Source: Myxococcales bacterium
GTDB lineage: Bacteria > Myxococcota > Polyangia > Fen-1088
Direction: 5' to 3'
DNA: 10,839 nt
Assembly: GCA_003153875.1 (NCBI GenBank)
Contig: PMBY01000304.1
Coordinates: 2,381 to 13,219 of the forward strand
Part shown: piece after piece, positions 1,126 to 10,839 of the stretch
Layout of the letters: each line of letters opens with the position of its first letter
Position numbering within the stretch: the first letter of the stretch is position 1
The notes under the pieces: model-generated
The model's input: the letters and a program-made list of their open reading frames with translations, nothing else
Told to the model about the DNA's origin: nothing
Database searches by the model: none
Program-made: the position numbers and the translations under genes

Positions 1126-1131
1126 TACCTT
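1126..1131 (+). promoter_or_regulatory. Candidate -10 element for a leaderless glk transcript
   Basis: The hexamer TACCTT lies seven bases before the glk ATG, and no Shine-Dalgarno-like purine tract is found in the 30 bases upstream. A TAnnnT-type -10 placed this close would start transcription at or next to the ATG. A related sequence sits in the same place before eno. No good -35 hexamer is seen at 17 bp, so the call is tentative. Confidence 0.3.
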
Positions 1132-1138
1132 GTTGCCC

Positions 1139-3510
<2,372 letters not shown>

Positions 3511-4521
3511 TTACGGCAGGTGAATTCGGGTGCCGGCTACGTGACATCCGTTGCAGTCGGGGTTAGTTGGAGTGGTCGACATGGTCTTGTCGGCGTTGGG
3601 GCACATGCTCACGGTCGGGGGACTCAAGGTGACCGCTTTGGTTGAATAGAAGGTGCCGCCTTTGTCGGTGATCATGGTCACGCTGCCAATCTTGACCGTG
3701 GCACCGGCGACAGCCGCGCCGCCAGAAGCGGTGGCGTAGACAGTTCCGGCCGCGTAGATCCTAGGGGAGTCACCTCCGGCGTTGTGGCAGTTTATACAGA
3801 TCTTCCCGGCATAGTGTTTCGCGCCGATGATGTTGGTCGCGACCGGAGTGCAGTTCGTGCTACCCCCTGCCGTGTCTGGGGGCCCGGCGTCTGGGCGACT
3901 GGTCGAACCACCGGCGCTAGTGGAGCCACCGGAGCTGGTTGCGCCAGCGGAACTGGTGGTGCCACCGGAGCGGGTCGAGCCGCCGGAGCTGGTTGCGCCA
4001 GCGGAGCTGGTGGCACCGCCGGAGGTGGTTGCGCCAGCGGAGTTGGTTGTGCCGCCGGAGGTGGTTGCGCCAGTGGAGTTGGTTGTGCCACCGGGGTTGG
4101 CTACGCCACCGGAGCTGAGTGCGCCAGCGGAGCTGGTGGCTCCACCGGAACGGATCGAGCCGCCGGAACTGGGTGCGCCAGCGGAGCTGGGTGCGCCAGC
4201 GGAGCTGGTGGCTCCACCGGAACGGATCGAGCCGCCGGAACTGGGTACGCCAGCGGAGCTGGGTGCGCCAGCGGAGTTGGGTGCGCCGCCAGAGCCAACC
4301 GAGCCACCCGCGTGGCTGGAACCGCCGGAGCTGATCGGACCAGCGGAACCAACCGAGTCCGCAGAAGCTGTCGAACCCCCCGAGCCAGCAGAGCTGCCTG
4401 AGCTACTCTTGCCGCCGAACACAGTCGGGCCAAAATCAGTCCCGGAAGGATCCCCCACGCACCCGCAGCCCAGCAACGCAAGCAAAAGACAGAGGCTCGA
4501 ATTGCAAAGGATTGGCTTCAT
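3511..4521 (-). CDS. Diheme c-type lipoprotein with long Gly/Ser-rich stalk
   Basis: The 336-residue protein has three parts. The N-terminus (about 1-21) is a lipoprotein signal ending LLALLGCGC, so Cys19 or Cys21 is the likely lipidated residue. Residues about 38-222 are a low-complexity Gly/Ser/Ala/Thr stalk built of SSGG and SSAGA units. The C-terminal 110 residues form a compact module with two heme c sites, CINCH (242-246) and CNGCH (323-327). Between them is a beta-rich segment starting GTVYATASGGAAVAGATVKI that looks like a small carboxypeptidase-regulatory-like or Ig-like fold; that fold is my inference. The stalk would hold the hemes away from the membrane, on the periplasmic or outer face. 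The ATG at 4521 has AGGTGAG eight bases upstream. It lies 136 bp after the cytochrome b fusion gene on the same strand, so it may be the end of that operon or have its own promoter; I saw no clear one. Its TAA touches the eno stop codon. Confidence 0.85.
   Translation of the reverse strand: MKPILCNSSLCLLLALLGCGCVGDPSGTDFGPTVFGGKSSSGSSAGSGGSTASADSVGSAGPISSGGSSHAGGSVGSGGAPNSAGAPSSAGVPSSGGSIRSGGATSSAGAPSSAGAPSSGGSIRSGGATSSAGALSSGGVANPGGTTNSTGATTSGGTTNSAGATTSGGATSSAGATSSGGSTRSGGTTSSAGATSSGGSTSAGGSTSRPDAGPPDTAGGSTNCTPVATNIIGAKHYAGKICINCHNAGGDSPRIYAAGTVYATASGGAAVAGATVKIGSVTMITDKGGTFYSTKAVTLSPPTVSMCPNADKTMSTTPTNPDCNGCHVAGTRIHLP
3856..4404 (-). repeat. Low-complexity Gly/Ser/Ala/Thr-coding repeat region
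   Basis: This is the DNA for the lipoprotein stalk. It is made of degenerate 12- and 15-base units that encode SSAGA, SSGG, SIRSGGAT and TTSGGTTN variants. The regularity creates long open frames in other phases on both strands, rich in Pro-Pro-Glu or Ala-Pro repeats, which are by-products. The length of this region is likely to vary between related strains. Confidence 0.85.
4121..4264. repeat. Two 72-bp tandem copies differing at one base
   Basis: Copy one is 4121-4192 and copy two is 4193-4264. Comparing them base by base I find one difference (G at 4175, A at 4247). Each copy codes for 24 residues of the lipoprotein stalk, so the reading frame is kept. The near identity, compared with the more diverged units around it, indicates a recent duplication by slippage or unequal crossing-over. 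Confidence 0.9.
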
Positions 4522-4657: not shown

Positions 4658-6550
4658 TCACACCGCCTTGTACATGAACCCGTAGGCGATGTGCACGCCA
4701 GCCAGGGCGAACATGATGATGGTTAGTATGATGTGAACCCAGTTCCAGTGGCGCAGCATCTTCTCGGCGCTTTCCAGGTAGCAGCGAGTGCGTCGCTGCG
4801 CGGCCCGGTCGGAGAGAAACTGCAGGACCTGTCGACGGGTCTTGCGATCGGGAATGTCGCCCAAGCCCGCGGCGCGCAGCCAGAGCAGTACGGCGAAATC
4901 GCGTACCTCGTGCCACAACATGACCGCGAGCAGCCCGTGCGATTTGGCCGCCCCCTCGTGCTCAGGGGTCAGAATGCGCATGGCGCGCGAGGGCCTGCGG
5001 CGACCGACCATTGAGGCGACACTGCGCGACAGAGATTCCATCTCGAAGTTCGCCAGGCCGATGCCCGAGTGGACCTGCCCGTAGAGGTAACGGCCGATTG
5101 CTCCAGATGCGACGACGATCCACATCGAGATGCACGACAGTCCCACCCAACGGTCCAGCTTGAAGGCTGCGTGATACGTGACAAGCGTGGCGCCGATGAA
5201 CCCTACCCACAGGTGGACAGTGAGCCAGGTGGATTGAGCGCCGAGGTTCTTCAGCAGGCCTAGCCGTGTATGCAGCGGGTACAGGAAGGTCAGCAGCATG
5301 AACGACGTGCCGATGTACCCAAGCCAGTGGCCGAATCCCTTGCCCGAGCTGTACGAAATCGGTTCGACGCTGCCTAGCCATTGCAGAAGGGCGGCCTGGA
5401 AGCTGTGCTCGGGCAGGGTCCGGCGCAAGAAGCACTCGAGGCCGATGGCCGCCAGGGCGAGAAACAGAAGGGTGGTCACCACTGCGCGGGCTGTGCGGTG
5501 GGTTTGCCGGGCACGGTGTTCGGCGACGCCTTCGAGGAATGCGACACCCGAGAAGGTTCGGCCGCTCCCGTTGGATCCCGGCCTTGATTCCGTGAACAGT
5601 TCCCGGGGCGAAAGTTCCAGCAGGGCGCCGGTTGGGCAGGCACGGAAACAGGCTCGATCGGCGAAGCCCGCGCAGTGATCGCATTTCACCGCCCGCTGGC
5701 GGTTCCGGCCCTCAGTTGTGTAGCGTACCGTGAAGATGGCGCCGTGGGGACACTCGCGCATGCAGGCGCCGCACCCTGTGCAGCGTTCGCTGATACGAAT
5801 TTCACCGTGCTCGTCGAGAGCCAAGGCTTGGGGCTTGCAGGACACCAAGCACGGCCTGTCCACGCACTGCCGGCACACTTGGTGGATGGCCAGGCGTCCG
5901 AGGCGCAGATCGGCGCGAATTCCTCGAGCGGAACCATGGCGTTTGGCACATGCGTCTTGGCATTTGCTGCAGTCGAGACAGCGATCGAGCTGGCTCACCC
6001 GCACCAGCGAGCTGGAGGCAAACCCACGGCGCAGGAAGAAGTCCTGCACCAGGCGCCGGGTGGGTTCCTGCTGGCTGAGAAAGTAGTTTCGCGAAGCCGC
6101 GATCTGTTGTCTGAGCCGCGAGGACCAGGCCGCGTGCCGGGCCATGAGTGCCGCCAAGGCTGGGCGGCTAGTGGCCAACAAAGTGGCCGACGTGGAGGCC
6201 ATGCAGTCGAGCACCGGCTCTCCCACGCCGGACGGGCAATCGAGAAAGCCGTCGGAGAAGAAGTCGCCCGGTGCAAAGAAGCCAATGTGTTCAAACGAGC
6301 GATCCTCGCACGAGCGCGCGGGGACAGTCGTGCCGTCCCGGTCGAGCGCGATGGAAACGACGCCTGAGAGCACGAAACAGTAGTTTTCGCCTTGGCCCCG
6401 TTGCAACAATGATAGGCGCTGCCGCTGGTTGAGATGGTGCACCTGGCTTCCGGACAAGAGCTCAGCGAGCGCTGGGCCGGGCAGGTCGGAAAAAACCGCC
6501 AAAGAGCGAAGGGAGTCAACTGTGACCGCGTGGCTTGCTTCTTGTGCCAT
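4658..6550 (-). CDS. Fusion of cNMP-binding-like domain, 4x[4Fe-4S] ferredoxin and membrane cytochrome b
   Basis: The 630-residue protein has three modules. Residues about 13-150 look like a Crp-type cyclic-nucleotide-binding fold (FSDLPGPALAELL; YCFVLSGVVSIALDRDG; FFAPGDFFSDGF). Residues about 187-310 are a dicluster-type ferredoxin doubled to 16 cysteines: C191/194/197/201, C226/229/234/238, C257/260/263/267 and C290/293/301/305, enough for four [4Fe-4S] clusters as in HycB/DmsB-type subunits. The rest has about five membrane helices (354-374, 408-427, 441-462, 468-490, 602-626). Helix 3 holds His446 and His460 and helix 5 holds His606 and His620, each pair 14 residues apart, the pattern for two stacked b hemes in ferric-reductase/NOX-like membrane domains. 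No flavin or NAD domain is present. With no export signal, the N-terminal modules should be cytoplasmic, so the protein can carry electrons across the inner membrane. The ATG at 6550 has TAGGAGA eight bases upstream, and the gene lies 36 bp after the 27-heme cytochrome gene. The exact family and electron direction are unknown. Confidence 0.85.
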   Translation of the reverse strand: MAQEASHAVTVDSLRSLAVFSDLPGPALAELLSGSQVHHLNQRQRLSLLQRGQGENYCFVLSGVVSIALDRDGTTVPARSCEDRSFEHIGFFAPGDFFSDGFLDCPSGVGEPVLDCMASTSATLLATSRPALAALMARHAAWSSRLRQQIAASRNYFLSQQEPTRRLVQDFFLRRGFASSSLVRVSQLDRCLDCSKCQDACAKRHGSARGIRADLRLGRLAIHQVCRQCVDRPCLVSCKPQALALDEHGEIRISERCTGCGACMRECPHGAIFTVRYTTEGRNRQRAVKCDHCAGFADRACFRACPTGALLELSPRELFTESRPGSNGSGRTFSGVAFLEGVAEHRARQTHRTARAVVTTLLFLALAAIGLECFLRRTLPEHSFQAALLQWLGSVEPISYSSGKGFGHWLGYIGTSFMLLTFLYPLHTRLGLLKNLGAQSTWLTVHLWVGFIGATLVTYHAAFKLDRWVGLSCISMWIVVASGAIGRYLYGQVHSGIGLANFEMESLSRSVASMVGRRRPSRAMRILTPEHEGAAKSHGLLAVMLWHEVRDFAVLLWLRAAGLGDIPDRKTRRQVLQFLSDRAAQRRTRCYLESAEKMLRHWNWVHIILTIIMFALAGVHIAYGFMYKAV

Positions 6551-6586
6551 GGTCGGTGTCTCCTAGTATGACATGCTCCATCTCAG

Positions 6587-8671
6587 CTATTGGGGCGCGT
6601 GGTGGCATGCTCGGCAATCGACACGCCGGTGACAGACGTAGCAGTTCTCGTTGGCAAAACTGCCCGCCGCAAACCCATGCAGCTTGCCCCAGGCCCCGCG
6701 GTGGTTGAGCGGCGCCGTGGTTCTGTGACACTGAATGCACGCACCAGGCTGGTGACACACGCGGCAGGGCTCGGGATCGAAAGCCGAGGCTGGTCCGTGC
6801 CCGCGCAGCCGCCAGAGCGCCGTGTGGCTCTTGGGCGGATGGCTGCGATGGCAGTTGCTGCAGACGGGCGAGGAGTGGCAGCGGGCGCACGCGCGCCCTT
6901 CGGCACCGGCCTCGTCTTCGTCCCAGGGCAGATTGGCGTGAGAGCGCAACCAGAGTTGGTCGTGGTCGCGCGGCTTCAGGGTTCGGCCTCCTGCCATGAG
7001 GCTGCGGAAATCGGTAGTGCTGTGACAGTCGGCGCACTTGGGCCCGGCTGACCCGCGATGCGGATCCGCGTGGCAGTCCACGCAGGTTTTCCCCATGAGC
7101 GGGAACCGGCGATCCAGCGGCGGCGCTGTTTCTTTCTTCGTCCAGCCGACGGCCGGCGGAGCGTCGGGCCGCGGCCGATGGCAGAAGGAACAGGCGAGAT
7201 CGCGATGGGCGCCGTCGCGCACGAAATGGGTCATCTGGTCGTGGTTGAACTTGGGCGCTCCCTTTTCCGGCCGGTGGCACTTGCCACAGTCCCGGCCCAG
7301 CTGGCCGCGATGCGGATCAGTCTGCTCGTGGCAGTTCACGCAGGTGACGTCGCCCAGTTTGTAGCGCCCGTTGACGTGGCACCCCTCGCACTTGGCGGTC
7401 TTGTGCAAGCCTTCCAGCGGGAATCGTTTGCTGTGTTTCCAGACCAGGCGCAGGTCTTTGAAATGCTGGGTCGGCGCGTGACACTTGGAACAGTCGTTGC
7501 CGAGCTGTCCGTTGTGCTTGTCTTTGTTTTTGTGACAGTCGACACAGGCAAGCTTGTTGGTGCGGTAGATCTCGTTCTGGTGACAGTTGGCGCACTTGCT
7601 GCGCACCTTGGGTTCAGCGTGGAAGCCGACGAGCGGGAAGCGCGTATCTTTGTTGTGGGTGAAGGCCCGCGTGCGCGTGCCGCCCTCCACGTGGCAACCA
7701 GAGCATGGCTTGTCCGCGAACTGCCCCTTGTGTACGCCCCGGTGCTGGTGACAGGTCACGCAGCCACCTTGGCTGTACGTCAGCTGCGTGCCCTTGCCGT
7801 GGCATTTCTTACAGTCCAGCGTCTGATGCTTGCCCAGAAGGGCAAAGCCGAAACGACGGTGGTCGACTTTGGCCTCTTTCCAAGGACGCCCGGCGAAGTG
7901 GCAGGACGCGCACTTGGCGGTGTCGACGGTCACGGGGTGGAAGGGACGGTGGCAGTCGGCGCACTTGCGCGGCGGCGTGCGGCCCGCCATCTGAGCATTG
8001 GGGTGGCACTTGGTGCAAGGCTGTTCCAGGTGCTTGCCGTCAAAGGCGATCCCCGAATATCGGCCGTGCGGATCCAGCCAGGCCGAGAGAAGCATGCCCT
8101 TCAGGACGTGACCCGGAGGATGGCAAGTGTCGCACTTCTGTGCCAGTTGGGTCTCGGTGAACCCGTGAACGGCTTTGTGGCAGCTGCGGCAATCCTTGGA
8201 AAGGCCGAGATAGGTGATACGGCCCGACTTCATACGCCGGGTGTGGCAGGAGGCGCAGGCGAGCTTGGCGTGGTCGTTGAGAAGCGAGAACCCGGTCTGG
8301 TTGTGGTTGAAGGTCTCGTGCCCGCCCGCGTGTTTCCAGTCGATGATGTTGAACTCTCGCCCCTTGTGCTGAGGATGGCAGTGCAGGCACGTCCCGGTGA
8401 AGGTCGCGTGCAGCCCTCGCCGTTTGGCCAGCTCATCTCTGAGCGGCTTGTGGCAGTCGAGGCACTTGGCGTCGGTGACGCCGTGATTGGCCTCGTGGCA
8501 CTTGGGACAGCCTTCCGAGTTGTCATTGGCCGCGTGACTCTCGTTGAGCGGCCCGGGCGCCACCCGGAAGAAAGACTGCTGCGCGACCACCAGGGGAATG
8601 GCGACCAGACTCGCCAGCAGCCAGCAGGCAAGGCCAATGAGGCGCGTTCTTCTGGTGGACTGAGGCCTCAT
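6587..8671 (-). CDS. 27-heme periplasmic c-type cytochrome
   Basis: The 694-residue exported protein has 27 CXXCH sites, about one per 25 residues. The N-terminus (RRTR, then a hydrophobic stretch at 11-29) is a Sec signal, with likely cleavage after VVA (28-30). Three parts follow. The first has three hemes (Cys55, 70, 95). The second has six triheme units starting near His123, 202, 271, 339, 413 and 477; most carry an F-x-L-x-G-x-H motif before the first heme, and two share an H-x-GQLG-x-DC-x-KCH ending. The third has three diheme units with exact 41-residue spacing (Cys595/604, 636/645, 677/686). Such tandem hemes form a long electron wire, here probably linking the inner-membrane cytochrome b to outer lipoproteins. 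The ATG overlaps the TPR gene's stop (ATGA, 8668-8671). The only purine tract (AGGAA) touches the ATG, so translation is probably coupled. No substrate-reducing domain is visible; an electron-transfer role is inferred. Confidence 0.93.
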   Translation of the reverse strand: MRPQSTRRTRLIGLACWLLASLVAIPLVVAQQSFFRVAPGPLNESHAANDNSEGCPKCHEANHGVTDAKCLDCHKPLRDELAKRRGLHATFTGTCLHCHPQHKGREFNIIDWKHAGGHETFNHNQTGFSLLNDHAKLACASCHTRRMKSGRITYLGLSKDCRSCHKAVHGFTETQLAQKCDTCHPPGHVLKGMLLSAWLDPHGRYSGIAFDGKHLEQPCTKCHPNAQMAGRTPPRKCADCHRPFHPVTVDTAKCASCHFAGRPWKEAKVDHRRFGFALLGKHQTLDCKKCHGKGTQLTYSQGGCVTCHQHRGVHKGQFADKPCSGCHVEGGTRTRAFTHNKDTRFPLVGFHAEPKVRSKCANCHQNEIYRTNKLACVDCHKNKDKHNGQLGNDCSKCHAPTQHFKDLRLVWKHSKRFPLEGLHKTAKCEGCHVNGRYKLGDVTCVNCHEQTDPHRGQLGRDCGKCHRPEKGAPKFNHDQMTHFVRDGAHRDLACSFCHRPRPDAPPAVGWTKKETAPPLDRRFPLMGKTCVDCHADPHRGSAGPKCADCHSTTDFRSLMAGGRTLKPRDHDQLWLRSHANLPWDEDEAGAEGRACARCHSSPVCSNCHRSHPPKSHTALWRLRGHGPASAFDPEPCRVCHQPGACIQCHRTTAPLNHRGAWGKLHGFAAGSFANENCYVCHRRVDCRACHHAPQ

Positions 8672-10014
8672 TTCCTACGTCGCGCCTTTGTCTTGGCCTT
8701 CGCCTTGGCCCGGCTGGGCTTCTTGACCTGCTGCTTGGGCGTGGCCTGTGATTGCGATGCGGCTGGCGGGCTCTCGGCCGGGCGATGCTCGGGCTCGGCA
8801 AGTCGGGCGAGTCGCGCGTCGGCCAGCTCGGAATGTCGCGGCCAGGCCTCGAACGCCGTCAGGTCGCGCGCCAGCCCCATGGCCTTGGCCTCGACCAGCC
8901 AGTCGAACGCATCGAACACGAAGGGTGCTTGGCCATTCACCGCCGCAATCGCCTGGCCGAGACTGCGCCGGCCCGCGATGGGATCGCCGGCGCGCACCTG
9001 GGCCTGGGCCAGGGCGAGATTCTGATGATAGAGCGCGACCGCCGGGGTTGGGTGCGCCGACGAAGCCGCCGAGGAGAGATCAGGCTTGGCAACCCGTGCG
9101 CCGGCGAACTGTTCCGATGCCAAACGGGTCCAGGCCGACTCGGGCGCGACGAGCGTGAGCCGGCCGACCAGTTTGCTGACAGCTTCCTGTTTGCCCTGGC
9201 GAGCCTCGAACCAGGCTTGTTCGTAGCGGTGGGCGAGCCACATGGGCCCGAGTTCCAAACTCCGATCCCAGGCCTGGCGAGCCGCCTTCACGTCGCCCTG
9301 GTATTCGAGGGCGGTGGCCAGCAGATAGTGGAACTCGGGATCTCGATCGAAAGCGGCGCGCAGCGAGTGCAGCTCAGCCAAGCGCGCGGCCCGCTCTTGC
9401 CGTGACGCCACGGCCAGGCTGGCCAGGGTTCGCTCGCCGGATGCGGGCGTGGTCGCCGCAGACGACAGATAGGGCTTGATGCGGCCGAGGCGCTCGGGGT
9501 CAGCATCCTGGTACCGGTAGAGAGCCGCCTCGCCGCGGATCATGAGATCGAGGTGAGCATCGTGCGGGTCGAGGGGGGCGTTCGCGCCACGCAGAAGCGT
9601 GAGGAATTGCGCTGCCCGATCCATCTCACCCTCCTTGAGGAAGCTGGCCAGATTGCGCGCGACATGTTCGCGGTCTTCGCCTCCCCGGCGCAGCAGGCCG
9701 GCGCGCACGATCCAGCCAGCCGCAGCGCCTACGCCGAGGACAAGAGTCAGCAGGGCTAGTCGCCTGAAGGGAGCGCCATGCCGTCGGGTCGTGCGGGTCG
9801 CGCCCAGGTACTGTCCCGGATCGAGCCAGGGCCCGAACACGCTCTCGCCGAACAGGCTGGCCAGTTGGCGATCGAAGCCCGAATCCCCGCGGTCGGCCGC
9901 GACCGCGGGTCGGTGAGCACTGTCCGCTCGACCCGCAGCCGGCGCGAAGGGGAGAGGGGGACGGCCATGGCCACCCGGGGGCGGCAGCGGCGGAGGTTTG
10001 TGCGGGGTCACCAT
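8668..10014 (-). CDS. Single-pass membrane TPR protein with basic C-terminal tail
   Basis: The 448-residue protein begins with a Pro-rich stretch (about 1-25) and a hydrophilic region, then one membrane helix at about 85-105 flanked by RR on both sides. Helical repeats follow. The clearest TPR is at about 224-258 (DPEFHYLLATALEYQGDVKAARQAWDRSLELGP region), and less regular helices span 115-175 and 325-405. The last 20 residues are a Lys/Arg/Ala tail (KAKAKTKARRRK). TPR proteins act as scaffolds, so this one may assemble the cytochromes around it; that is inference. The start is either the ATG at 10014, with GGGAG six bases upstream, or the GTG at 10011, which would overlap the previous stop as GTGA. 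I chose the ATG. It overlaps the upstream heme lipoprotein gene by 7 bp and the downstream cytochrome gene by 4 bp, so it is firmly part of the operon. It has no heme motif. Confidence 0.8.
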   Translation of the reverse strand: MVTPHKPPPLPPPGGHGRPPLPFAPAAGRADSAHRPAVAADRGDSGFDRQLASLFGESVFGPWLDPGQYLGATRTTRRHGAPFRRLALLTLVLGVGAAAGWIVRAGLLRRGGEDREHVARNLASFLKEGEMDRAAQFLTLLRGANAPLDPHDAHLDLMIRGEAALYRYQDADPERLGRIKPYLSSAATTPASGERTLASLAVASRQERAARLAELHSLRAAFDRDPEFHYLLATALEYQGDVKAARQAWDRSLELGPMWLAHRYEQAWFEARQGKQEAVSKLVGRLTLVAPESAWTRLASEQFAGARVAKPDLSSAASSAHPTPAVALYHQNLALAQAQVRAGDPIAGRRSLGQAIAAVNGQAPFVFDAFDWLVEAKAMGLARDLTAFEAWPRHSELADARLARLAEPEHRPAESPPAASQSQATPKQQVKKPSRAKAKAKTKARRRK

Positions 10015-10730
10015 GGATTGCTCCCATGACAGCCGCTGGCGGTGTCGGTGTCCGCGCAGGTCCTGGTCACCGGATCCCAGGTACCGGCTGCCATGCTGAC
10101 GTCGACTTCACCGTCCACGTGAAGGTCTCGGTGGGTGATGGTCAAGTCGGCAGAAGTCACCCTGCTGTGGCAGGTGTCGCAAGTGTATGCGGTATGCAAC
10201 GGGTGCGAACCGCCCAGATCCGTCGGCAAGACGCCGTGGCACGAATTGCACTTGGTTTGCGAGCCGTCGACCTTGGTCCAGCGAGGGGGCGCTGGCTTGA
10301 ACGTACCGGGCAGGGTGGCGCCATGACAGTAGGTGTTCGTGCAGGTTCCCCTCGCGCGGTTCCAGACTGGAGTCGTCCCTCCAGTCTGCGCCAGCGGGTC
10401 AAGGAATTGCGTCACCGTCCCACGCGCCAGTGGATCCGGATGGGCGTCACCGTTCATCAAGGTGGGCACCGGGTGGCATTCTTCACAGGCGACTGGGGCG
10501 GAAATGGATCCCCCTGTCATGTGGGATTGGTGGGCGCCCACGCCGTTGTCACTCGTGCTGGTCGATCCGTTGAGCGCCAGCGGAGGAGCCGCATTGTCCT
10601 TGTTGCCATGACATGAGGAACAGTCCAGCTTGGCCGGGAGACCATCGCGAAGTGGGCTGCGCTGACAGCCCAGCCCGCCAGACAGCAGAATCCCGGCCAG
10701 GGGCAGGAGTTGGCGGAGAAGGCTCCTCAC
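10008..10730 (-). CDS. CxxxxCH/CxxCH multiheme lipoprotein
   Basis: The 240-residue protein has a lipoprotein signal ending LSGGLGC, with Cys22 the likely lipidated residue. It carries heme c sites CSSCH (37-41), CEECH (82-86), CNSCH (161-165) and CDTCH (184-188), and a CX4CH site, CTNTYCH (130-136). A sixth possible site is Cys225-X8-Cys234-His235. The CX4CH followed by CXXCH arrangement is the one described for the Geobacter-type family GSu_C4xC__C2xCH, whose members are secreted heme proteins. So there are probably five hemes and possibly six. It would sit on a membrane surface and pass electrons to or from the 27-heme protein two genes away. The start is a GTG at 10730 with GGAGG four bases upstream, overlapping the stop of the gene before it as GTGA. 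Whether it faces the periplasm or the cell exterior cannot be told from the sequence. Confidence 0.87.
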   Translation of the reverse strand: MRSLLRQLLPLAGILLSGGLGCQRSPLRDGLPAKLDCSSCHGNKDNAAPPLALNGSTSTSDNGVGAHQSHMTGGSISAPVACEECHPVPTLMNGDAHPDPLARGTVTQFLDPLAQTGGTTPVWNRARGTCTNTYCHGATLPGTFKPAPPRWTKVDGSQTKCNSCHGVLPTDLGGSHPLHTAYTCDTCHSRVTSADLTITHRDLHVDGEVDVSMAAGTWDPVTRTCADTDTASGCHGSNPW

Positions 10731-10839
10731 AGATCCTCCCGAATCGAGAAGAACGCCGACTGAATGGTCCGGTCGACGATCTCCAGGGTGTAGCGCGCGC
10801 GCAGCTCCAGCCAGGGCAGGGCGCGAACCCCGGCACTTG
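10727..10839 (-). CDS. C-terminal end of a probable beta-strand-rich (outer-membrane barrel?) protein, cut by window edge
   Basis: One minus-strand frame is open from the window edge to a TGA at 10727-10729 that overlaps the next gene's GTG start by four bases (GTGA). It gives about 37 residues ending in FFSIREDL. The stretch WLELRARYTLEI alternates hydrophobic and polar or charged residues strictly, as in an amphipathic membrane beta-strand. Together with the heme genes downstream this suggests a porin such as those of porin-cytochrome conduits, but the fragment is too short to name, and the last residue is Leu rather than the usual Phe. That the frame is coding rests mainly on the overlap and the lack of stops. 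Confidence 0.55.
   Translation of the reverse strand, partial: SAGVRALPWLELRARYTLEIVDRTIQSAFFSIREDL

What the first reader, a model, noticed from the sequence alone, without database searches (positions are those of the whole stretch)
4658..10839. Compact operon that looks like a transmembrane electron-transfer conduit of unusual make-up
Five minus-strand genes are packed with 4-7 bp overlaps or a 36-bp gap: a partial beta-strand-rich protein, a CX4CH/CXXCH lipoprotein, a TPR membrane protein, a 27-heme cytochrome, and an Fe-S/cytochrome b fusion. Known porin-cytochrome systems (MtrCAB, the Geobacter OmbB/OmaB/OmcB type) combine a porin with multiheme cytochromes, and their usual inner-membrane partners are CymA- or Cbc/ImcH-type quinol oxidases. 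Here the inner-membrane partner seems to be a cNMP-domain/ferredoxin/cytochrome b protein. That it is one electron pathway is inference.
Basis: partly seen in the sequence, partly recalled or inferred. Interest (0 to 1): 0.85.

Follow-up and report, generated by a model that had tools for sequence, protein, structure and literature searches.

The report
Envelope-spanning multiheme electron conduit operon
This bacterial gene cluster encodes what looks like a complete electron wire from inside the cell, across both membranes, to the outside; its inner end appears built to take electrons from soluble carriers such as NADPH or ferredoxin rather than from membrane quinones, which can be tested.

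Summary
Five minus-strand genes overlap by 4, 7 and 4 bp or lie 36 bp apart; their order is conserved in 7 of 10 close loci, and 42 contigs carry at least two of three key genes. The gene cut by the window edge is, in a close relative, a 470-aa protein predicted as a 22-strand outer-membrane barrel.

By its features the system is a new variant of the published PCC3/PCC4 type of porin-cytochrome conduit (PMC5566968): its inner-membrane protein has five helices, SGxxG and two WX3HX13H di-haem motifs, and its cytochrome has 27 haem motifs.

The new part is the cytoplasmic side: a CRP/FNR-fold domain and a four-cluster ferredoxin fused to the cytochrome b. In 33 of 106 family members a complete YpdA-like NADPH/FAD module is inserted in that ferredoxin; the tree implies repeated loss or truncation, and the window protein lacks it. 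On plasmids of other groups a related cytochrome b adjoins a separate NAD(P)H-type flavoprotein in 8 of 8 contexts opened, of 14 records.

Best reading: a conduit fed by NADPH or ferredoxin instead of quinol. Anatomy is shown; donor, direction and substrate are inferred.

The parts
10727..10839 (-). C-terminal end (36 aa) of the outer-membrane beta-barrel gene; complete relative is L001:4409-5821, 470 aa
10008..10730 (-). 5-haem putative outer-membrane lipoprotein (4 CxxCH + 1 CxxxxCH), 240 aa; two tandem copies of the module in L006 and L014
8668..10014 (-). membrane-anchored TPR-like protein, 448 aa, one TM (85-108); role unknown, perhaps scaffold or assembly
   Evidence: a relative is present in 10 of 10 close loci
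6587..8671 (-). 27-haem c-type cytochrome, 694 aa: seven triplets of CxxCH (c7-like) then three close pairs; N-terminal hydrophobic segment 9-37
   Evidence: CxxCH number a multiple of 3 in 113 of 120 listed relatives
4658..6550 (-). CRP/FNR-fold + four-cluster ferredoxin + di-haem cytochrome b fusion, 630 aa
6071..6532 (-). residues 7-160 of the fusion: CRP/FNR-type beta-roll
5636..5980 (-). residues 191-305: 16 Cys in four [4Fe-4S] motifs
   Evidence: invariant Cys columns in 35 rows; full-pattern match in 111 of 120 relatives, 105 of the 106 tree rows; profile match to HycB4 E 1.4e-23
5684..5749 (-). residues 268-289: site at which relatives carry a ~350-aa YpdA-like NADPH/FAD module; absent here
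4667..5500 (-). residues 351-628: five TM helices; W442/H446/H460 and W602/H606/H620 (two WX3HX13H) and SGAIG at 482-486
   Evidence: two WX3HX13H in 118 of 120 listed relatives
3511..4521 (-). possible accessory: lipoprotein-like protein with Ser/Gly repeats and 2 CxxCH, 136 bp downstream
   Evidence: related gene in the same place in L001-L004 (the L005 contig ends there)

Best explanation
The operon encodes a complete trans-envelope electron conduit of the porin-cytochrome kind. The inner-membrane fusion protein collects electrons in the cytoplasm through four [4Fe-4S] clusters and moves them across the inner membrane through two b haems. It hands them to the 27-haem cytochrome, a modular wire long enough in principle to cross the periplasm, which passes them to a 5-haem lipoprotein at or in a 22-strand outer-membrane barrel and so to an extracellular acceptor (Fe(III) or humic matter would fit the fen habitat of the nearest MAGs). 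The electron source is a soluble low-potential carrier, not quinol: NADPH through a built-in YpdA-like flavoprotein module in relatives, and in this clade, where the module is absent, probably ferredoxin or a separate reductase. The CRP/FNR-like domain probably regulates it. Shown: gene order, domains, motifs, the barrel prediction, linkage, and distribution of the flavin module. Inferred: one pathway, the carrier, outward direction, the acceptor, and the roles of the TPR and sensor domains.
For: Order and linkage. Barrel. Five TM helices and two WX3HX13H. Four-cluster ferredoxin. Complete flavin module with FAD and NADPH motifs in 33 of 106 tree rows, inserted between Fe-S motifs III and IV; all 33 keep GGGxSA followed by SYRxxxFxRxK. 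On the Emticicia plasmid a cytochrome b with two WX3HX13H, a YpdA-like protein with Fe-S motifs (34% over 371 aa to the fused module, E 2e-72 for the single comparison) and 23- and 37-haem cytochromes are adjacent separate genes. In the other 7 of 8 opened plasmid contexts (14 records matched) the gene just before the cytochrome b matches NADH oxidoreductase PRK10684 at E 8e-54 or better, under that model's curated cut-off, and the gene after it has 7 CxxCH.
Against: No biochemical datum exists. The window protein itself has no flavin module, and genomes with the short form show only distant YpdA relatives (best E 2.4e-17 against 9e-47 to 3e-46 in long-form genomes), so its donor is unknown. 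He et al. proposed a quinone-active role for this cytochrome b type. The module has been lost or truncated repeatedly, so NADPH is not essential to the core. The seven Proteobacterial plasmid cytochromes b carry at most one full WX3HX13H and two lack SGxxG, so they are cousins whose partners may not carry over. Three of seven distant-class contexts with a called cytochrome b had no large cytochrome within 7.5 kb. The fit of cytochrome to barrel was not modelled. pLDDT in the Fe-S region is low.
Confidence: 0.5

Rival explanations
1. An ordinary PCC3/PCC4-like conduit: the di-haem cytochrome b exchanges electrons with the quinone pool and the Fe-S, flavin and CRP-like parts are regulatory or side inputs.
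For: He et al. 2017 put this model forward for the same motifs; two b haems in an H-x13-H bundle resemble quinone-active cytochromes b; the flavin module is dispensable.
Against: Four conserved Fe-S clusters on the cytoplasmic side are not needed for simple quinol oxidation (inference); NAD(P)H-type flavoproteins recur next to related cytochromes b elsewhere.
Confidence: 0.27
2. The conduit runs inward: extracellular electrons (Fe(II), humics, a partner cell) are taken up and reduce ferredoxin or NADP+.
For: PCC3/PCC4 were proposed from iron oxidisers; FAD/Fe-S chains are reversible; inward flow of electrons would be the energy-conserving direction (inference).
Against: Fe(II) is too positive to reduce NADP+ or ferredoxin without extra energy (general knowledge); carbon fixation genes were not looked for.
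Confidence: 0.2
3. Not extracellular respiration: the barrel admits a soluble substrate and the cytochromes reduce it in the periplasm or at the surface (as proposed for ExtI and selenite/tellurite), or the system only discards excess reductant.
For: The barrel's best fold matches are uptake receptors; ExtI of Geobacter is a porin in a cytochrome cluster with such a proposed role; no large extracellular cytochrome as in PCC3.
Against: 27 to 36 haems linked to a barrel and a lipoprotein cytochrome fit long-distance transfer better than one periplasmic reduction (inference).
Confidence: 0.13

Closest known systems
PCC3 (He et al. 2017, PMC5566968; Gallionellaceae survey PMC10734462)
   Same: Porin gene, large periplasmic cytochrome (27 CxxCH here; 21, 24 and 27 reported in Gallionellaceae), inner-membrane protein with 5 TM, SGxxG on TM4 and WX3HX13H on TM3 and TM5.
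   Different: No large extracellular cytochrome but a 5-haem lipoprotein; a TPR-like protein; cytochrome b fused to a four-cluster ferredoxin, a CRP/FNR fold and, in relatives, an NADPH/FAD module; nearest relatives are Myxococcales MAGs.
PCC4 subgroup II (He et al. 2017)
   Same: Inner-membrane protein with a neighbouring Fe-S (pfam13247) gene, the two annotated as one gene in one Oceanospirillum record; porin; periplasmic cytochromes.
   Different: PCC4 has cytochromes with 4, 5 and 10 haems; FAD, NADPH module or cyclic-nucleotide terms are not used for it in the main text I searched; its supplementary domain figure was not seen.
Emticicia oligotrophica plasmid pEMTOL02 cluster (L087)
   Same: Homologous cytochrome b (E 1e-11, single comparison), homologous YpdA-like flavoprotein (E 2e-72 to the fused module), large multihaem cytochromes side by side.
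   Different: Separate genes; 23 and 37 CxxCH; no CRP-like domain seen; a barrel gene is annotated nearby on the other strand, its homology not tested.
NOX / ferric reductases (PF01794)
   Same: NAD(P)H-flavin feeding two b haems held by H-x13-H pairs; He et al. drew the motif parallel.
   Different: Pfam match only E 0.0089, below cut-off; different flavin domain; here the electrons would go to cytochromes c.
MtrCAB / PioAB and Geobacter OmbB-OmaB-OmcB
   Same: Porin plus multihaem cytochromes across the outer membrane.
   Different: Barrel not MtrB_PioB and cytochrome not matched by the DmsE/MtrA decahaem model; no CymA, Cbc or ImcH partner recognised among the window proteins scanned. The Geobacter proteins were not compared.

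Membership tests
PCC3/PCC4-type conduit (He et al. 2017) | Inner-membrane protein with five TM helices | tested here: met
   AF2 helices 351-378, 406-430, 439-464, 467-515 and 569-628; count of five is my reading
PCC3/PCC4-type conduit (He et al. 2017) | Two WX3HX13H motifs (TM3, TM5) and SGxxG on TM4 | tested here: met
   W442/H446/H460, W602/H606/H620, SGAIG 482-486; both WX3HX13H in 118 of 120 relatives; SGxxGR in 78 and [SAT]GxxGR in 116 of 120
PCC3/PCC4-type conduit (He et al. 2017) | Porin gene in the cluster | tested here: met
   22-strand barrel predicted for the complete relative; only 36 aa of it lie in the window
PCC3 | Separate large extracellular multihaem cytochrome | tested here: not met
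   only a 5-haem lipoprotein and a downstream 2-CxxCH protein in the window
PCC3/PCC4-type conduit (He et al. 2017) | Sequence homology to a named PCC3 or PCC4 protein | not tested
   no named PCC3/PCC4 sequence was fetched
MtrAB/PioAB | MtrB_PioB barrel (PF11854) and DmsE/MtrA decahaem cytochrome | tested here: not met
   PF11854 in 1 of 46 barrels at E 0.0083, not in L001's; no TIGR03508 hit for the cytochrome at E 0.01
Geobacter OmbB-OmaB-OmcB | Homology to OmbB/OmaB/OmcB | not tested
   no such sequence was compared
Four-cluster ferredoxin (HycB/DmsB kind) | Sixteen Cys in four [4Fe-4S] motifs | tested here: met
Ferric reductase transmembrane domain / NOX | PF01794 above cut-off | tested here: not met
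   16.5 bits against a cut-off of 28
CRP/FNR-like sensor fold | Beta-roll fold | tested here: met
CRP/FNR-like sensor fold | Cyclic-nucleotide phosphate-binding Arg | tested here: inconclusive
   no Arg at the expected stretch in the window protein and not constant in the family, by eye; the cassette is recalled, not computed

The most novel reading that the evidence does not exclude
This cytochrome b family is in general an NAD(P)H- or ferredoxin-to-multihaem-cytochrome transmembrane oxidoreductase, a bacterial NOX-like device wired to an outer-membrane conduit, so a whole class of extracellular electron transfer systems bypasses the quinone pool; in one Myxococcota-centred lineage the NADPH module was inserted into the ferredoxin and then shed many times as the electron source changed.
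Probability: 0.4. Interest if true: 0.82.

Novelty: new variant of a known kind. Interest (0 to 1): 0.62.

Why it matters
A conduit whose inner-membrane unit is built to draw on NADPH or ferredoxin would change the energetics (no quinone loop; outward flow favoured by membrane potential, by general reasoning) and puts an open question in testable form: what does the PCC3/PCC4-type inner-membrane protein, for which He et al. hypothesised a quinone-active role from sequence, react with? The fused and split versions give ready proteins for assay, one in a named strain (Emticicia oligotrophica DSM 17448).

Tried and rejected
Plain MtrCAB membership was rejected. A sequence search of the cytochrome and a profile search of the barrel against solved structures gave nothing useful. 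MtrB-type chains do not appear in the listed Foldseek/VIA rows, which excludes nothing. No Rfam family was found. That short-form genomes keep a free-standing copy of the flavin module was tested and not supported (only distant hits; the 14 control genomes also ring). The ~850-aa VIT/vWA gene upstream in L001 and L003-L005 was left out of the system because it is not found in the held stretches of L002, L006-L009 and L014. Distant-class contexts were read only by a crude gene caller; 13 of 20 gave no cytochrome b call. In one search collapsing weak branches had no effect, so the forced minimum of 7 changes comes. A first NADPH-motif count gave 0 of 33 because my pattern's spacing was wrong; corrected to 33 of 33. 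The one insert of 33 with a CxxC (P0026) looks like a boundary artefact of its Fe-S motif, by eye.
Full report
What is in the window. The five-gene array is as described. On the minus strand, reading from the window's right edge: the last 36 aa of a frame that starts outside, the 240-aa 5-haem lipoprotein-like protein, the 448-aa TPR-like membrane protein, the 694-aa cytochrome with exactly 27 CxxCH and the 630-aa Fe-S/cytochrome b protein; overlaps 4, 7 and 4 bp, then a 36-bp gap. The TPR label rests on sub-threshold Pfam scores. Purifying selection is clear against L001 and L004 (dN/dS 0.10-0.34 for the four complete genes).

Relatives. A scan of the public genome contigs with an alignment of the cytochrome b protein gave 20 loci. 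L001-L005 are Myxococcales MAGs named 'fen' with 83-90% identical proteins; L006 and L014 are Polyangiaceae MAGs. The window order barrel-lipoprotein-TPR-cytochrome-cytochrome b is present in L001-L006 and L009, 7 of the 10 close loci (L001-L009, L014); L014 has the first four in order and the cytochrome b gene inverted beside them; L007 and L008 have part of the set and no related barrel in the held stretch. Among the 120 best listed relatives of each of three proteins, 42 longest-contig lengths are shared by at least two families and 10 by all three; shifting lengths gives a mean of 0.4-0.6 per pair. So the close type is rare in held genomes and the distant class wider. Distant-class L018, L019 and L069 show the cytochrome b next to a 27-30-haem cytochrome and a likely outer-membrane protein; of seven distant contexts with a called cytochrome b, three had no large cytochrome within 7.5 kb.

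The cytochrome. The 27 motifs fall into seven triplets followed by three close pairs. Across the 120 listed relatives, some of them partial, the motif number is a multiple of three in 113: most often 27 (25), 30 (34), 33 (25) and 36 (10). The wire seems to grow or shrink in triheme units. Gallionellaceae PCC3 periplasmic cytochromes are reported with 21, 24 and 27 haems and as possibly long enough to cross the periplasm (PMC10734462, passages).

The hidden module. Relatives of 800-980 aa carry an insertion between Fe-S motifs III and IV. In P0023 and P0065 it is a YpdA-like NADPH/FAD oxidoreductase (TIGR04018 E 3.8e-45 and 4.2e-46, under that model's curated cut-off; Pyr_redox_3 above its own). 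All 33 complete modules keep GGGxSA and SYRxxxFxRxK, which resembles the NADPH site of thioredoxin reductases (motif recalled); 32 of 33 lack a CxxC. In P0029 (810 aa) most of the NADPH half is missing and in P0063 (751 aa) the FAD half; other 750-820-aa rows are similar by length and motif, 13 of them keeping neither motif. Of 106 full-length rows (14 of 120 dropped), 33 are complete, 29 truncated or unclear, and 44 have none, 15 of those being the distant class. On a quick ML tree of the shared core the distant class falls outside; if the module was gained once, the best tree needs 10 losses or truncations, and starred branches alone force at least 7 changes. The window's clade of 18 'none' rows lies among complete forms, and P0021 (none) is sister to P0023 (complete) at SH-aLRT 99. 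Repeated gain by recombination at one site is less likely but not excluded.

Independent evidence for an NAD(P)H link. tblastn of the membrane part against 72,556 plasmids matched 14 records, none over 80% of the query. In Emticicia oligotrophica pEMTOL02 a 281-aa protein with two WX3HX13H (E 1e-11 to the window's membrane part, single comparison) is followed by a 440-aa YpdA-like protein with Fe-S motifs, 34% identical over 371 aa to the fused module (E 2e-72), and then by 23- and 37-haem cytochromes. In the other seven contexts opened (Alteromonas, Variovorax twice, Methylophaga, Acetobacter, Glaciecola, Salinimonas) the gene before the cytochrome b matches NADH oxidoreductase PRK10684 at E 8e-54 or better, below its curated cut-off, and the gene after it has 7 CxxCH. 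That is 8 of 8 contexts opened, of 14 records (six Alteromonas records not opened). These seven cytochromes b have two HX13H pairs but at most one full WX3HX13H, and the two Variovorax ones lack SGxxG, so they are cousins, not proven members.

Mechanism. The simplest chain is: soluble donor, four Fe-S clusters, two b haems, the triheme wire, the 5-haem lipoprotein at the barrel, the outside. Long forms would take NADPH; the window's short form must take another donor, and genomes with it show no close free copy of the module. Outward flow is favoured by redox and membrane potential (general reasoning); inward flow is the main directional rival, and a quinone link as in He et al. the main rival for the donor.

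Literature. Besides the papers above I saw passages on ExtI (PMC5877670), an in-paper term search without hits in PMC6295460, and search listings. In those listings no title or abstract start described an NADPH- or ferredoxin-linked porin-cytochrome conduit or this operon; the library is partial and He et al.'s supplement was not seen, so priority is not claimed.

Noticed in passing
L001:1307-3865 (also L003-L005): An ~850-aa protein close to TIGR03788 'marine proteobacterial sortase target' (below its cut-off) lies upstream of the barrel gene, preceded by a small protein sharing similarity with it.
   Followed up: partly
window 3511-4521: Ser/Gly-rich repeat protein with a signal-like N-terminus and 2 CxxCH, conserved just downstream in fen relatives L001-L004; the aligned part is ~127 aa.
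   Followed up: partly
window 1130-3510, + strand: Frames that read like glucokinase (MIIAGDIGGTKT) and enolase (MKTAIIKKVVAREILDSRGNPTVE), names recalled, with a short PWPW-type repeat between them.
   Followed up: no
L085, L094, L095 (plasmids): NADH-type 2Fe-2S flavoprotein, cytochrome b and a 7-CxxCH cytochrome sit next to NiFe hydrogenase or hydrogenase-maturation genes on Alteromonadaceae plasmids; similar sets lie near copper-resistance genes in L086 and L093.
   Followed up: no
L020:9458-10654: Oscillochloris MAG protein matching the Fe-S part of the fusion (31% over ~200 aa) without a cytochrome b part.
   Followed up: no
L006, L014: The lipoprotein is doubled: two tandem 5-haem modules in one open frame with 10 CxxCH.
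   Followed up: partly
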